A stretch of 64,000 nt of DNA from Rhizobacter sp. SG703 (GTDB lineage Bacteria > Pseudomonadota > Gammaproteobacteria > Burkholderiales > Burkholderiaceae_C): NCBI RefSeq assembly GCF_012275445.1, contig NZ_JAAZQK010000013.1:62001-126000 (forward strand). The letters are read 5' to 3'. Shown piece by piece: positions 2-4,946 of the stretch (within the stretch, counting starts at the first letter, position 1; every line of letters starts with the position of its first letter). The position numbers were made by a program, and so were the translations under genes. The notes under the pieces are model-generated. The model worked only from the letters and a program-made list of their open reading frames with translations. It did no database searches and had not been told where the DNA came from.

Positions 2-748
2 GTCGAGATCGGCGAGGTGCGCGCGATCCGCCCCGGCTACGACGCCGAGCACAAGCGCTACCCGATGGAGGTCACCGCCGACGTGCACCCGCTGCGCCTG
101 GGCGCGGTGCGCGGTGCGCTGGTCGAGGACGGTGCGGGCCAGCGTCCTGCACCGGCCCGGACGCCGGACCAACGGCGGGCCGAGCGGCGCGAGCTGAACC
201 TGCAGCTGTTCCAGCGCCTGGTCGAGAACGGCCTGCGCGCGCAGCTGCGCACCGGCAACCTGCTGACCGGGCAGATGTACGTCGCGTTGGATTTCATCCC
301 GAAGACGCGCCCGGCCAGGCTCGCGATGGCCGATGGCGTGCCCGAGGTGCCGACGGTGCCGGGCACGTTGTCGGACGTGCAGCCGCAGATCGCCGAGATC
401 GTCGCGAAGATCAACAAGGTGCCGTTCGACGACATCGGCCGCGACCTGCGCGCCACGCTGGCGCAGGCGCGCGAGGCGATCGCGAAGCTGTCACCCGAAG
501 CGCAGCAATCGCTGGCGGAGGTGCGCAAGACGCTCGATGCGCTGCAGGGTTCGCTCGGCAAGTTCGACCGCAACCTGCTCGACCCCGACGCGCCGGTGCA
601 ACGCAACGTGGAGCAGACGATGACCGATTTGCAACGGGCCGCGCAATCGCTGCGCGTGCTGACCGACTACCTGCAGCGCCACCCCGAATCGCTGCTGCGC
701 GGCAAGCCGGCCGATCCGCCGCTGCCGTCGCTGGAGAACGCGCGATGA
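2..748 (+). CDS. pqiB: Intermembrane transport protein PqiB, C-terminal part (5' end outside window)
   Basis: Partial gene: the frame is open from base 2 and the visible 248 residues are only the C-terminal part of a protein that is normally about 550 residues long. PqiB is an inner-membrane-anchored MCE protein that forms a periplasm-spanning tunnel for lipid transport. Visible support is the end of an MCE repeat (LTGQMYVALDF, around residue 97) followed by a long amphipathic helical tail rich in Ala, Leu, Arg and Gln, as in PqiB C-termini. The stop codon overlaps the start of the next gene (ATGA at 745-748), and that gene encodes a PqiC-type lipoprotein, which strengthens the call. A GTG at 17 is internal, not the start. 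Confidence 0.88.
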   Translation, partial: VEIGEVRAIRPGYDAEHKRYPMEVTADVHPLRLGAVRGALVEDGAGQRPAPARTPDQRRAERRELNLQLFQRLVENGLRAQLRTGNLLTGQMYVALDFIPKTRPARLAMADGVPEVPTVPGTLSDVQPQIAEIVAKINKVPFDDIGRDLRATLAQAREAIAKLSPEAQQSLAEVRKTLDALQGSLGKFDRNLLDPDAPVQRNVEQTMTDLQRAAQSLRVLTDYLQRHPESLLRGKPADPPLPSLENAR

Positions 749-1371
749 AGGCGTGGCGGGCGGTCGAAGTGCGGACAACGCTGGTGCTGCTGGCCGCCGT
801 GTCGATGGCGGGTTGTGCATCGCAGCCGCCGGTGCGCTTTCACAGCCTGCTGCCGGCGGTGTCGTCGTCGCCGGCATCGACGCCGCCGGCCGCCGCCGGC
901 GCGCCGCTGGTCGTCGAGCTGGGTCCGGTGACGGTGCCGGCCGCGGTCGACCAGCCGCAATGGGTGCTGCGTGCCGGCGACGACAGCCTGCGCGTGCTCG
1001 AAGGCGAGCGCTGGGTCGCGCCGTTGCGCGACGAACTGCGTGCCGCGGTGATGGCGAGGCTGGCCGAGCACTTCAACGCGGTCGACGCCCGCACGCAGCC
1101 CGGCCCGGCGAGCGGCTGGCGCCTGCGCATCGAGGTGCAGCGTTTCGAATCGATGCTCGGCCGCGAGGCCTGGATCGACGCGGCGTGGTCGGCCACCTCG
1201 GTCGCGACGCCGGTGCGCACCGTGGCCTGCACGAGTCGTCTGCATGAGCCCGCGGGATCCGATGCACCTTCAATCGCTGCGGCACACCGTCGCGCGGTGC
1301 AGCGATTGGCGGATCAGATCGGCGAGCGGCTGAGGGCGATGGAGCAGCAGGCGTCGGTATTGGCTTGCTGA
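745..1371 (+). CDS. pqiC: PqiC-type ABC-transport auxiliary lipoprotein
   Basis: 208-residue outer-membrane lipoprotein of the PqiC/YmbA (DUF330) family. Family members dock the PqiB needle at the outer membrane. The N-terminus has a short charged segment, a hydrophobic helix and a lipobox ending SMAGC near residue 24, so the mature protein should begin at that Cys. The body carries family-like features: PVRFHSLLP just after the lipobox, and WVLRAGDDSLRVLEGERW around residue 72. It is translationally coupled to pqiB through ATGA. A large palindromic repeat starts 16 bp after the stop and could terminate the transcript. Confidence 0.85.
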   Translation: MKAWRAVEVRTTLVLLAAVSMAGCASQPPVRFHSLLPAVSSSPASTPPAAAGAPLVVELGPVTVPAAVDQPQWVLRAGDDSLRVLEGERWVAPLRDELRAAVMARLAEHFNAVDARTQPGPASGWRLRIEVQRFESMLGREAWIDAAWSATSVATPVRTVACTSRLHEPAGSDAPSIAAAHRRAVQRLADQIGERLRAMEQQASVLAC

Positions 1372-1386
1372 GCGGGTGCCCTGCTT

Positions 1387-1637
1387 GCAAAGGCGCGGGT
1401 GGGGCGGCTGTGGCGCGCCGGACGGGTCGGTCATCATCCCTGGCGGGATGCTGACTTCCCTCCGCTGGCTGGTTGGATGGCCCGTCGCCGAAACTCCCTC
1501 CACTCACTTCGTTCGTTGTGGTCAAACAGTCGGCGACAGTCAGTTCACGAACGCGCTGCGCGCGGGGCCATCCAACCAGCCAGCTCCGGCGACCCGCCCT
1601 GATTGGCGCGCCACAGCCGCCCCACCCGCGCCTTTGC
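1387..1637. repeat. Nested palindromic repeat, copy A
   Basis: Three concentric inverted repeats can be read directly. The outer arms 1387-1419 and 1605-1637 are perfect over 33 bp. The middle arms 1465-1483 and 1565-1583 are perfect over 19 bp. The inner arms 1484-1490 and 1531-1537 are perfect over 7 bp. The interior between the inner arms is a 40-bp core (1491-1530) that recurs in inverted orientation, with two differences, at 1862-1901. Arms differ completely in sequence between the two copies while the core is kept. No transposase is present, so a non-autonomous element or structured extragenic repeat is possible; its function is unknown. Confidence 0.85.
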
Positions 1638-1662
1638 CGGCACCGCCCGCTCTGTTTGGGGG

Positions 1663-1728
1663 GAAAAGATTGAAGTGATCGACGAGCGCGCCAGCGCTCG
1701 CATGCTCGTCTGTCACTTCAGTCTTTTC
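1663..1728. repeat. Hairpin between the two nested palindromes
   Basis: Inverted repeat with arms 1663-1678 and 1713-1728 (15 of 16 bp paired, beginning GAAAAGATTGAAG) and a second inner stem, 1681-1687 with 1704-1710. The right arm runs into TCTTTTC, so it could act as a terminator for pqiC if the upstream repeat does not. Confidence 0.6.
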
Positions 1729-1754
1729 CTCGCCCAAGAGCGGCGGGTGTTGAG

Positions 1755-2001
1755 CGGCGGGTGAGGGGATGGGCTGGGCTGGGGGCGATTTCTGGGGCGA
1801 CGGAGAAGATCGGCTTTGGGGATGGCGCGCGCCAGCGCGCTTCGTGGACTGATTCATCGGCACTGTTTGACCACAGCGAACGAAGTGAGCGGAGGGAGTT
1901 TGCCGATGCATCCCCAAAGCCGATCTTCGCAGTGGAGTCGGCCCGCCAGGGCCGACCGCCCCGGCATGAGCCCCCAGCCCAGCCCATCCCCTCACCCGCC
2001 G
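1755..2001. repeat. Nested palindromic repeat, copy B
   Basis: Same architecture as copy A with unrelated arms. The outer arms 1755-1785 and 1971-2001 are perfect over 31 bp. The middle arms 1805-1824 and 1909-1928 are perfect over 20 bp. The inner arms 1855-1862 and 1901-1908 are perfect over 8 bp. The shared core lies at 1862-1901 in inverted orientation (38 of 40 bp identical to copy A). The right outer arm overlaps the end of the minus-strand regulator and encodes its last residues and TGA stop. A 20-bp part of the outer arm (GGGTGAGGGGATGGGCTGGG) recurs at 56118-56137. Confidence 0.85.
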
Positions 2002-3113
2002 CGACGCGCCAAGCCCAGCCCCGCAAACGCATCCTCCAGCCGATGCACCTCCCCCGCATGCCGCGCGTCATACCCCGGCAACTGGTTCGCCGCCGCGCGG
2101 AACTCCTCGCTGCCCAGCACCGCCACCAGTTGCTGCATCGCCGGCGTGTCGAAGAACGCTTCGTCGCACAGCAGGAAATACTGCTCCGTCTGCAGCGGAA
2201 TGAAGTCCAGCTCGAAGCGCCGCGCCGCCGTCTCGACGCCGAAGCCCGCATCGGCCATGCCGCTGGCCACGTAGGCCGCCACCGCCGCATGCGTGCGCTC
2301 GCACGGCGCATGCCCCACCGGCCCGGCCGGGTCCACCCCCGCCTGCTGCAGCAACAGGTCGAGCAGCAGCCGCGTACCCGACCCAGGATCGCGGCTGACG
2401 AAGCGCACGTCCATGCGCGCCAGGTCCGCCATCCCGCGCACGCGCAGCGGATTGCCCGCCTGCAGCATCAGCCCCTGCCGCCGCGTGCTCACATCGATCA
2501 GCATCTGCTCGCCCGGCCGCAGCCACGGCCGGTAATGCTCGACCCCCGCCGCTTCGAACTCGCCATGAGGCACATGCAACCCGGCCACGTCGCACTGCCA
2601 GCTCGTCATCGCCGACACCGCCTCGATGCCGGTGCAGTACTTCCATTCCAGCTGCATGCCGTCGGCGGCCAGCTGCTGCTGCAGGATCTCGATCGAAAAA
2701 CCATGGCTCGCGTGCAGGCGCAGCACCGCCGGCGGCTCCTCCATCGCCTGCGCGATCTCGGCCTCGAGTTCCGACGCGATCGATTCGAACAGCGGCGTCA
2801 GCCGCGCCGTGATACGGCGATCGGCCCACACCAGTTTTTCGCCCAGCGGCGCGAGCGTCGAGTTGCGCCCCGGCGACATGCGCAGCAGCGGCGCACCGAA
2901 CAGCGCATGCCCCTCGCGCACCATCTGCCAAGCATGGCGGTACGACAACCCGCTGGCCTCGCACGCGCGCGCCAGGCTGCCGTGCTGCTGCACGAGGCGC
3001 AGCAGTTCGATCAGCCGCGGCATCAGCGTGCCGCCGCCTTCGCGCGTCAACGACCACTGCGGCTTGATGGTGACTTTGTTCACGGAATACAGCCTTATCG
3101 TTTTCCTGCCCAT
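1992..3113 (-). CDS. ModE-like HTH regulator with a periplasmic-binding-like C-terminal domain
   Basis: One-component regulator of up to 373 residues. The N-terminal 100 residues form a ModE/LysR-type winged helix (LARACEASGLSYRHAWQM). The rest resembles the substrate-binding fold fused to HTH domains in proteins found beside molybdenum or formate dehydrogenase genes (GSGTRLLLDLLL, FGVETAARRF). It is divergent from the transporter and molybdoenzyme genes, so it is likely their regulator, sensing molybdate, molybdopterin or a carboxylate; the ligand is unknown. The ATG at 3113 has no ribosome-binding site. A GTG at 3083 has an AAGG nine bases upstream and lies just before KVTIKPQW, where related proteins usually begin, so 3083 may be the true start. 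The stop codon lies inside a palindromic repeat arm. Confidence 0.72.
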   Translation of the reverse strand: MGRKTIRLYSVNKVTIKPQWSLTREGGGTLMPRLIELLRLVQQHGSLARACEASGLSYRHAWQMVREGHALFGAPLLRMSPGRNSTLAPLGEKLVWADRRITARLTPLFESIASELEAEIAQAMEEPPAVLRLHASHGFSIEILQQQLAADGMQLEWKYCTGIEAVSAMTSWQCDVAGLHVPHGEFEAAGVEHYRPWLRPGEQMLIDVSTRRQGLMLQAGNPLRVRGMADLARMDVRFVSRDPGSGTRLLLDLLLQQAGVDPAGPVGHAPCERTHAAVAAYVASGMADAGFGVETAARRFELDFIPLQTEQYFLLCDEAFFDTPAMQQLVAVLGSEEFRAAANQLPGYDARHAGEVHRLEDAFAGLGLARRGG

Positions 3114-3272
3114 GTAAGCGATTGCTTGTTCGCGGGCCTATGTCCGCGGCATCATATTGCCGCCACGCCGGCCCCTGCCTACAGTCCGGAGCTTGCGTGT
3201 CACTGCAGCATCAAGACCCGTGCGAGCCCGGCGGGATCTTGAATACCGATACTCACAAACCCGGGAGCAAGA

Positions 3273-4946
3273 ATGTCTTCAACCACAGCGGAATCGACAA
3301 CCTCCGCGCCAGCCGGCGCCGCCGGACTGCTCGACAAGGAGCGGACGATCGCCGGCCCTGGCTTCAATCGCTGGCTCGTCCCGCCGGCAGCCCTGGCCAT
3401 CCACCTGTGCATCGGCATGGCCTACGGCTTCTCGGTGTTCTGGTTGCCGTTGTCGAAGGCGCTGGGCATCAAGGAAGCGATCAAGTGCGGCCCGGACGTC
3501 GGCTTCTTCGCCGAATTGTTCACCACCACCTGCGACTGGAAGATCTCGACGCTCGGGTGGATGTACACCTTGTTCTTCGTGTTCCTCGGCTGCTCGGCGG
3601 CGCTGTGGGGCGGCTGGCTCGAACGGGCCGGCCCGCGCAAGGCCGGCGTGGTCAGTGCGTTGTGCTGGTGCGGCGGCATGCTGATCTCGGCACTGGGCAT
3701 CCACCTGCACCAGTTCTGGATGATGATCCTCGGCTCCGGCGTGATCGGCGGCGTCGGCCTCGGCCTCGGCTATATCTCGCCGGTGTCGACGCTGATCAAG
3801 TGGTTCCCCGACCGCCGCGGCATGGCCACCGGCATGGCCATCATGGGCTTCGGCGGCGGCGCGATGATCGGTTCGCCGCTCGCCGCCGAGCTGATGAAGA
3901 CCTTCGCATCGCCGACCGACGTCGGCGTGATGCAGACCTTCATCGTGATGGCGCTGGTCTACTTCGTCTTCATGCTGGGCGGGGCCTTCGGCTACCGCGT
4001 GCCGCCGAGCGGTTGGAAGCCCGAAGGCTGGACCCCGCCGGTCGCGCAGACGAGCAACGCGATGATCACGCAGCGCCACGTGCACGTGAAGAAGGTCTGG
4101 GGCATTCCGCAGTTCTGGCTGGTCTGGCTGGTGCTGTGCATGAACGTCAGTGCCGGCATCGGCGTGATCGGCATCGCGAGCCCGATGCTGCAGGAAGTCT
4201 TCGGCGGCAGCCTGATCGGCGTCGACGCCAAGTTCGGCGCGCTCGACAAGGTGCAACTGGCGGCGATCGCCGGCGTGGCCGCCGGCTTCACCGCCCTGCT
4301 GAGCCTGTTCAACATCGGCGGCCGCTTCGTGTGGGCCAGCTTCTCCGACAAGCTCGGCCGCAAGGTGACCTATGCGGTGTTCTTCGTCCTCGGCGGCATC
4401 CTGTACGCCAGCCTGCCCGGCAGCGCCACCGCCGGCAGCAAGCTGCTGTTCGTCGGTGCGGTCTGCATCATCCTGAGCATGTACGGCGGCGGCTTCGCGA
4501 CGGTGCCGGCCTACCTGGCCGACCTGTTCGGCACGCAGATGGTGGGCGCGATCCACGGCCGCCTGCTGACGGCCTGGGCCACGGCCGGCATCCTCGGCCC
4601 GGTGGTCGTGAACTACATGCGCGACTACCAGCTCGGCCTGGGCATCCCGCGCGAGCAGGTCTACAACCAGACGATGTACATCCTGGTCGGCATGCTGGTG
4701 ATCGGCCTGATCGCCAACCTGTCGATCCGTCCGGTGGCCGACAAGTACTTCATGAGCGACGAGGAACTGGCCGAAGAAAAGCGCCTGGCGCATGACCGCG
4801 CGGCCGCGTCCGACGTCGGCGCGGGTTCGGGCGCCGGTGGCACCACGCCGACCTTCATGGTCGCGCTGGCCTGGGCGGCTGTCGGCATTCCGCTGGCCTG
4901 GGGCGTCTACAAGACCTTGCTGACCGTGGGCAAGTTCTTCGCCTGA
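3273..4946 (+). CDS. OFA-family MFS transporter (oxalate/formate antiporter type)
   Basis: 557-residue inner-membrane protein with about 12 to 14 hydrophobic segments. It belongs to the major facilitator superfamily, oxalate:formate antiporter (OFA) group. Visible features are the N-terminal helix with CIGMAYGFSVFWLPL, the loop WFPDRRGMATGMAIMGFGGGA typical of OFA proteins, and a second-half signature GGRFVWASFSDKLGRK. It is longer than a standard MFS protein because of a roughly 60-residue insertion after the first helix (GPDVGFFAELFTTTCDWK) and an extra C-terminal helix. A GGGAGC ribosome-binding site precedes the ATG. Its place upstream of a formate-dehydrogenase-like enzyme suggests uptake or exchange of formate, oxalate or a related acid; the actual substrate cannot be read from sequence. 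Confidence 0.85.
   Translation: MSSTTAESTTSAPAGAAGLLDKERTIAGPGFNRWLVPPAALAIHLCIGMAYGFSVFWLPLSKALGIKEAIKCGPDVGFFAELFTTTCDWKISTLGWMYTLFFVFLGCSAALWGGWLERAGPRKAGVVSALCWCGGMLISALGIHLHQFWMMILGSGVIGGVGLGLGYISPVSTLIKWFPDRRGMATGMAIMGFGGGAMIGSPLAAELMKTFASPTDVGVMQTFIVMALVYFVFMLGGAFGYRVPPSGWKPEGWTPPVAQTSNAMITQRHVHVKKVWGIPQFWLVWLVLCMNVSAGIGVIGIASPMLQEVFGGSLIGVDAKFGALDKVQLAAIAGVAAGFTALLSLFNIGGRFVWASFSDKLGRKVTYAVFFVLGGILYASLPGSATAGSKLLFVGAVCIILSMYGGGFATVPAYLADLFGTQMVGAIHGRLLTAWATAGILGPVVVNYMRDYQLGLGIPREQVYNQTMYILVGMLVIGLIANLSIRPVADKYFMSDEELAEEKRLAHDRAAASDVGAGSGAGGTTPTFMVALAWAAVGIPLAWGVYKTLLTVGKFFA

What the first reader, a model, noticed from the sequence alone, without database searches (positions are those of the whole stretch)
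1387..2001. Two nested palindromes with different arms but a shared 40-bp core
Copy A (1387-1637) and copy B (1755-2001) each have three concentric inverted repeats (33/19/7 bp and 31/20/8 bp, all perfect). The arms are unrelated between copies, but the central 40-bp loop is 38/40 identical and inverted between them. Perfect arms that have diverged completely between copies around a constant core suggest a process that keeps arms matched inside each copy, for example template-switch copying or a structure-dependent enzyme. This is not a usual REP, IS or ERIC layout known to me.
Basis: seen in the sequence. Interest (0 to 1): 0.75.

Follow-up and report, generated by a model that had tools for sequence, protein, structure and literature searches.

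The report
Paired branched-hairpin repeats between genes
The two odd palindromes are one copy of a repeated DNA element, a facing pair of large folded hairpins, which is scattered between genes in many related bacteria and whose paired arms change together so that the fold survives; its job is not known.

Summary
Observation confirmed. A (1387-1637) and B (1754-2002) each have perfect nested arms of 33/20/8 bp; their 40-bp cores are 38/40 identical and inverted. With a middle hairpin they form one ~620-bp element. The core occurs 18 times in this genome, and 80 and 55 times in two Rhizobacter strains. A covariance model finds the fold in 125 of 299 genomes of the same family; outside the family it matched only 2 genomes, in samples of 299 (phylum) and 200 (order). 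No Rfam 15 family reaches gathering score.

A and B are two subfamilies whose arms do align within each type. Arms still co-vary: 19 comparisons of orthologous copies show 73 pair-preserving double changes against 6.1 expected. Wobble mismatches are mostly G.U on one strand. Two-hit loci all face each other (36 of 36); divergent promoter regions are avoided (1 of 58 loci). REP-type transposase shows no association.

Best reading: an oversized, branched BIME-like repeat family, probably acting as folded RNA or single-stranded DNA. Function and mover are unknown.

The parts
1387..1637 (-). Hairpin A: outer stem P1, side hairpin P2, stem P3, stem P4, 40-nt apical core, joint, side hairpin P5. Strand given is the G.U-tolerant one
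   Evidence: fold and arms; 47 aligned copies, 42 counted for covariation and strand asymmetry
1491..1530 (+). 40-nt core of A (orientation CTCCCTCC...; the G.U-tolerant fold is on the other strand)
1648..1748 (.). Middle hairpin M between A and B; similar hairpins seen in sister copies, variable in sequence
   Evidence: z -6.99; sister copies
1754..2002 (+). Hairpin B: same architecture as A in inverted orientation; overlaps the last bases of the right-hand gene
   Evidence: (39 aligned copies, 36 counted)
1862..1901 (-). 40-nt core of B
745..1371 (+). Left flanking gene, ABC-type transport auxiliary lipoprotein (PF03886); ends 15 bp before A
1992..3113 (-). Right flanking gene with LysR-type HTH and PBP-like domain (PF00126, PF12727), convergent with the left gene

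Best explanation
The locus is one copy of a dispersed extragenic element: two large branched hairpins (types A and B), apparently of common descent, facing each other around a short spacer. It is an oversized analogue of a BIME (a pair of inverted REP hairpins). The arm sequence itself is not what is kept; the fold is, in a single-stranded form of one strand (RNA or ssDNA). Conserved unpaired parts (apical core, joint GAACTGACT) together with the stems are presumably read by a protein or RNA. Because the G.U-tolerant strand of each hairpin points outward from the spacer, a transcript crossing a pair from either side carries the correctly polarised fold second, so a pair would work the same for both flanking genes, for example as a 3'-end barrier or stabiliser. 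Shown: repeat family, pairing, facing order, covariation, strand polarity, avoidance of divergent promoters, deletion-type remnants. Inferred: that the fold is bound, that it acts at 3' ends, and that it is RNA rather than ssDNA. How new copies arise is unknown.
For: Copies: 18 cores here, 80 and 55 in G002 and G008, which are Rhizobacter sp. Root1238 and OV335. Fold in 9 of 11 genus genomes and 125 of 299 family genomes; specificity. Covariation: 33 of 76 (A) and 50 of 81 (B) pairs show two or more Watson-Crick types; 36 of 38 pairs over 95 rows from other genomes; outer core pair A/T in 61 and G/C in 47 of 109 copies, none mixed, one with an N. Orthologues: 73 double changes against 6.1 expected over 19 comparisons. 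Strand polarity, outward strand, G.U against A.C: 47:11 (A) and 60:7 (B); 69:19 in other genomes; 158:77 by arm-to-arm alignment that scores all mismatches alike. Arrangement: 36 of 36 two-hit loci face each other; in Rhizobacter, neighbouring cores within 900 bp are facing in 30, tandem in 8 and back-to-back in 0 of 38 cases. Context: 31 convergent, 26 co-directional, 1 divergent of 58, against 11/36/11 of 58 adjacent gene pairs in the window, or 6/16/11 if only gaps over 30 bp count.
Against: No expression data. No promoter-like or terminator-like site in 1340-2020. Other non-pairs (neither G.U nor A.C) number 25 in A and 79 in B, 85 in other genomes and 432 in the cruder count, so stems are not immaculate. 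The first rough count gave a weaker asymmetry in A (89:50, other 233). Single hairpins and copies without their inner part persist, so neither the pair nor the inner fold is essential at a site. Two of 11 genus genomes and 174 of 299 family genomes gave no match. One divergent locus among Rhizobacter and one among distant loci (L261). Strand-biased mutation could in principle mimic the polarity.
Confidence: 0.6

Rival explanations
1. Arms are matched by mutation, not selection: template switching or hairpin-directed repair copies one arm onto the other, as in quasipalindrome correction; the element has no function in its folded form.
For: 73 matched double changes against 6.1 expected, half of them transversions (37 of 73) that have no G.U step. 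Published precedent: PMC8794818 and PMC8604942 (search listing and abstract starts seen).
Against: Most invariant columns lie in the core and joint, not in the stems. The joint and P5 sit on one side of the core: the joint motif is on the right in 105 of 110 copies; 5 of these also match the loose motif on the left, the other 5 lack it on the right, and by eye all ten have the normal left arm, so no inverted core was seen; arm copying would tend to erase such asymmetry. Double changes are mostly scattered, not in blocks. Strand asymmetry of mismatches.
Confidence: 0.2
2. A classical REP/REPIN population moved by a RAYT-type Y1 transposase.
For: Inverted pairs, intergenic, uni- and convergent location, tens of copies: as described for REPs (PMC3733652, passages read).
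Against: Hairpins of ~250 nt instead of 20-40. Y1_Tnp found in 27 of 39 rich and 15 of 20 empty genomes, so absent from 12 rich ones; one copy each in the core-bearing genomes; no element within the fetched flanks of the 10 genus Y1_Tnp genes; no Y1_Tnp among the six ORFs tested from four long-spacer loci.
Confidence: 0.07
3. A MITE moved by a conventional or not yet known transposase that cuts at the outer ends.
For: Presence/absence at an orthologous site: the L052 site is empty in G000, G008 and G010.
Against: No clean target-site duplication could be read there, because the flanks differ; at the L043 site G000 and G008 carry remnants, and at the L058 site G008 carries a reduced copy (the 3.9-kb stretch between the flanks in G000 was not examined). 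Three sites only.
Confidence: 0.13
4. Ordinary intrinsic terminators that happen to be long.
For: Position roughly 8-27 bp after stop codons at many sites and convergent context.
Against: No stem-loop plus T-run in 1340-2020 on either strand; size, branching and conserved loops are not needed for a terminator.
Confidence: 0.05

Closest known systems
REP / BIME (bacterial interspersed mosaic elements)
   Same: Dispersed, intergenic, hairpin-forming, often paired head-to-head or tail-to-tail with two related types and a spacer, found mainly between uni- and convergently transcribed genes (PMC3733652, passages)
   Different: About 250-nt branched hairpins with a 40-nt conserved apical loop instead of 20-40-bp units; strong stem covariation with conserved loops; no association with Y1 transposase in the genomes tested
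ERIC and YPAL repeats (enterobacteria)
   Same: Palindromic repeats of about 127 and 130-169 bp that fold as hairpins and occur between genes (PMC2267715, passages)
   Different: Other bacteria; the passages seen do not describe a facing pair as the unit; no sequence comparison was made
Curated structured RNA families (Rfam 15)
   Same: Conserved loops, covarying stems, strand polarity
   Different: No family reaches gathering score in 14 distant loci; in the window only hits below gathering score, chiefly long-hairpin microRNA models
Quasipalindromes maintained by template switching
   Same: Arms stay matched while changing
   Different: No core inversion seen in 110 copies, one-sided parts conserved; precedent papers seen only as listing and abstract starts

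Membership tests
REP/BIME | Dispersed intergenic hairpins, often inverted dimers of two types | tested here: met
REP/BIME | Units of 20-40 bp | tested here: not met
   251 and 249 bp
REP/BIME | GTAG or CGTC tag at the foot of the hairpin | not tested
   No systematic count made
REPIN/RAYT | Associated Y1 (REP) transposase | tested here: not met
   27 of 39 rich against 15 of 20 empty genomes; none of 10 genus genes has an element in its fetched flanks
MITE | Terminal inverted repeats with target-site duplication and precise empty sites | tested here: inconclusive
   3 sites; one empty, no readable duplication
Structured RNA | Covarying stems with conserved unpaired nucleotides | tested here: met
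Structured RNA | Wobble tolerance on one strand | tested here: met
   G.U:A.C 47:11 and 60:7; 69:19
Structured RNA | Transcribed | not testable with these tools
   No expression data; no sigma-70-like promoter in 1340-2020
Rfam family | Score at or above gathering threshold | tested here: not met
   14 of the 20 loci fetched; window 1000-3300
Intrinsic terminator | GC-rich stem-loop followed by T-run | tested here: not met
   0 found in 1340-2020

The most novel reading that the evidence does not exclude
A widespread but undescribed class of strand-polar structured elements (RNA or single-stranded DNA), typically deployed as a facing pair, present in about two fifths of sampled genomes of one large betaproteobacterial family and read by a dedicated, unknown factor that recognises the apical core and joint.
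Probability: 0.35. Interest if true: 0.75.

Novelty: new variant of a known kind. Interest (0 to 1): 0.6.

Why it matters
It adds a large, highly ordered repeat family with no Rfam 15 match at gathering score, present in 63 of 141 sampled genera of one bacterial family. Because many copies sit at orthologous sites in close species, it also offers a natural test of an open question: are long matched hairpins maintained by selection on the fold or by arm-to-arm copying during replication?

Tried and rejected
Rfam: only hits below gathering score in the window, none at gathering in 14 distant loci. Phage, plasmid and viral collections: no match; these used a strict core pattern or blastn, so diverged copies could be missed. 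Y1_Tnp and reverse transcriptase as partner genes: rejected as above. Long-spacer pairs as autonomous versions: L072 holds a SIR2-like and a ParA-like gene; one or two ORFs each from L071, L242 and L234 have no Pfam family; no common gene seen. Idea that the inner hairpin is a second, nested mobile element: A hairpins lacking it exist in several truncated forms (L298, L311, L315, L326, L327), and for some the junctions lie at short direct repeats (by eye), so deletion is simpler; not settled. The first mismatch count mixed in fixed internal loops and was replaced by the column count, but is reported.

Rows dropped before counts. One search aligned 86 of 110 copies (23 had N, were cut by a locus end or had more than 3 core mismatches; the hybrid L017 was left out by hand). 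One search left out 5 of 47 A and 3 of 39 B copies (tandem or truncated). One search used 19 of the 29 comparisons; of the 10 left out, one had no partner copy and the other nine had 2, 2, 1, 2, 0, 0, 0, 1 and 1 matched double changes. The 19 are not independent, since some species triples give two comparisons. One search used 89 of the 97 matches (one weak opposite-strand match and duplicates dropped). Model R1 used 40 of 55 non-redundant copies. One search took all 39 other genomes with 10 or more matches and 20 of the 174 without.

Literature searches listed no paper that I recognised as describing this family; two papers were read in passages only.

Full report
What is there. One search measures perfect nested arms of 33/20/8 bp in both A (1387-1637) and B (1754-2002), with 40-bp cores that match at 38 of 40 positions in inverted orientation. 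A third hairpin, M, lies between them. All three fold far better than 200 shuffles: z -15.6, -14.4 and -7.0. The element fills the gap between two convergent genes: a PF03886 lipoprotein gene that ends 15 bp before A, and a gene with LysR-type HTH and PBP-like domains whose end B overlaps slightly.

It is a repeat family. With up to 3 mismatches a 22-base piece of the core has 18 matches in this genome. A 36-base core, also with up to 3 mismatches, has 80 matches in G002, 55 in G008 and none in 57 other relatives. An exact 25-base core pattern over one genome per species (84,980 species) hits 89 stretches. Of these, 88 lie in Rhizobacter sp. Root1238 and OV335; the remaining one (L163) is in a genome bin labelled Deltaproteobacteria and does not carry the fold, its best model score there being 15.5 bits. 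The window's own genome may be left out of that scan. Contig lengths show that G002 is Root1238 and G008 is OV335, so the window's genome, of the same genus, is a Rhizobacter by inference. The phage, plasmid and viral collections gave nothing.

Two subfamilies, one architecture. The alignment of 47 A and 39 B copies shows A arms aligning with A arms and B arms with B arms. From outside in, both have outer stem P1, side hairpin P2 on one side, stem P3, stem P4, the 40-nt core, a joint (GAACTGACT on the folding strand) and side hairpin P5 on the other side. Of 110 distinct copies, 62 were typed A, 45 B and 3 mixed: by eye one hybrid (L017), one truncated (L019) and one mis-typed B (L044). No copy has its core inverted relative to its arms: the joint motif is right of the core in 105 of 110, and by eye the ten copies that miss the motif there or match it loosely on the left all have the normal left arm.

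Arms co-vary. Among pairs predicted on both strands, 33 of 76 in A (42 copies) and 50 of 81 in B (36 copies) show two or more Watson-Crick types. In alignment A1 (40 sequences) 27 of 40 predicted pairs have both-sided changes. In the core, the outer variable pair is A/T in 61 and G/C in 47 of 109 copies, with none mixed and one N; the inner one is 103 to 6 with none mixed. Outer arms are on average 97% matched within a copy but 78% (A) and 67% (B) identical between copies; they are fully perfect in 14 of 41 A and 13 of 34 B copies (the within-copy values come from a local alignment and are therefore flattering).

Orthologous copies. One or both flanks, mostly 86-97% identical, identify the same site in two or three species. 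Over 19 comparisons there are 81 pairs changed on both sides, 73 of them still Watson-Crick, against 6.1 expected if the arms changed independently. Of the 73, 36 are transition-type and 37 transversion-type. Ten further comparisons were left out (see Tried and rejected); their counts were 0 to 2. Some comparisons share a species triple, so they are not independent.

Strand polarity. On the strand that points outward from the spacer, wobble-type imperfect pairs are mostly G.U: 47 against 11 A.C in A and 60 against 7 in B; 69 against 19 over 95 rows from other genomes (on an alignment fitted to the model); 37 against 12 among single changes between orthologues (which also has 74 other single changes). 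A cruder count gave 89 against 50 in A and 98 against 8 in B, and 158 against 77 in distant members. Other mismatches number 25 and 79, 85, 432. G.U tolerance on one strand is expected if a single-stranded form of that strand has to fold. G.T also fits in DNA, so RNA and ssDNA are not separated by this. Strand-biased mutation is possible in principle.

Beyond the core-bearing strains. A covariance model of the inner 121 positions (short calibration, so E-values are rough) has matches at E <= 0.01 in 9 of 11 genus genomes and in 125 of 299 genomes of the family, 63 of 141 genera. In a phylum sample 5 of 299 genomes match, all of the same family, the window's own included. In an order sample 5 of 200 match: the window's genome, two of the same family and two of one genus in another family. 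Samples above 40 genomes were scored with stricter filters and may miss weak matches. Of 60 loci fetched hold two kept matches and 24 one; in all 36 the first is on the minus and the second on the plus strand, the facing arrangement of the window. These loci were picked among the best matches, so the share of pairs is not an unbiased estimate. Among two-hit loci with both flanks called, 13 are --, 6 ++, 10 convergent and 0 divergent; one single (L261) is divergent. In Rhizobacter the figures are 31 convergent, 26 co-directional and 1 divergent of 58 loci with both flanks called (14 more lack a flank; orthologues count separately). The window has 11, 36 and 11 of 58 adjacent gene pairs, or 6, 16 and 11 when only gaps over 30 bp count. 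Gene calls are from a simple codon model of my own.

Gain and decay. At the L052 site G000, G008 and G010 have no element, but the flanks differ and no target duplication can be read. At the L043 site G000 keeps only outer remnants, and in G008 the interior is another palindromic repeat. At the L058 site G008 has M with A and B both reduced to outer parts; in G000 the flanks are 3.9 kb apart and were not examined further. Further A hairpins without the inner part exist. At some sites one partner no longer has a recognisable core while the orthologue has both (L014 against L087 and L068; L021 against L051 and L065). Tandem inner duplications occur in Root1238. The two flanks of one Root1238 element (L042) lie at two different places in this genome (L018, L020), so the repeats also mark rearrangement points.

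Who moves it. Y1_Tnp is found in 10 of 11 genus genomes (the one without, G003, has 15 model matches), in 27 of 39 element-rich and in 15 of 20 element-free family genomes. Reverse transcriptase is found in 9 of 11 genus genomes; the two without, G004 and G009, have 8 model matches each. No element lies in the fetched flanks of these genes (22 loci). Long-spacer pairs hold unrelated cargo.

Reading. The simplest account is a family of dispersed, facing, branched hairpins whose fold on one strand is under selection. In arrangement and location it resembles BIMEs (PMC3733652, passages), but it fails their size and transposase criteria. Since the folding strands point outward, a transcript from either side meets the correctly polarised hairpin second, which would suit a bidirectional 3'-end device; this step is inference. 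Arm copying by template switching (precedent PMC8794818, listing and abstract start only) remains a rival. It explains the many transversion-type double changes, but not the conserved one-sided parts, the lack of inverted cores or the strand polarity.

Noticed in passing
L072 1899-3868 (Rhizobacter sp. OV335): A SIR2-like (PF13289) and a ParA-like (PF13614) gene sit between a B and an A hairpin 2.7 kb apart; looks like a defence-type cargo at a repeat-bounded site.
   Followed up: partly
L071 2078-2656: An ORF that looks like the end of an Rhs protein (by eye; no Pfam match) between B and A hairpins 1.4 kb apart.
   Followed up: partly
L163 7576-7600: The 25-base core pattern occurs exactly in a contig labelled Deltaproteobacteria, without the hairpin around it; unexplained.
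   Followed up: partly
L297 (G008:C63:14150-14700): Interior of an element replaced by another palindromic repeat (CGTTCGCCCTGAGC...); by eye a similar repeat lies between the two hairpins of L216 (G001).
   Followed up: no
L018 and L020 against L042: The two flanks of one Root1238 element lie at two separate places in the window's genome, each with an A hairpin: a rearrangement point.
   Followed up: no
L017 1010: A hybrid hairpin with A left arm and B right arm at the site where OV335 has B and A; fits inversion between the two cores followed by loss.
   Followed up: partly
L047, L053-L057, L086, L160: Tandem duplications of the inner hairpin, 67-190 bp apart, in Root1238.
   Followed up: partly
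L186 410-2592: In the window's genome a reverse transcriptase ORF (436 aa, PF00078) sits beside a UbiA gene (PF01040); RT matches of similar length exist in G002 and G008. Orthology in other genus genomes was not worked out.
   Followed up: partly
G025: Twenty Y1_Tnp matches in one genome, several split into two pieces.
   Followed up: no
G002, G008: Many contigs end inside or next to a core, as expected if the repeats break short-read assembly; copy counts there may be off.
   Followed up: no
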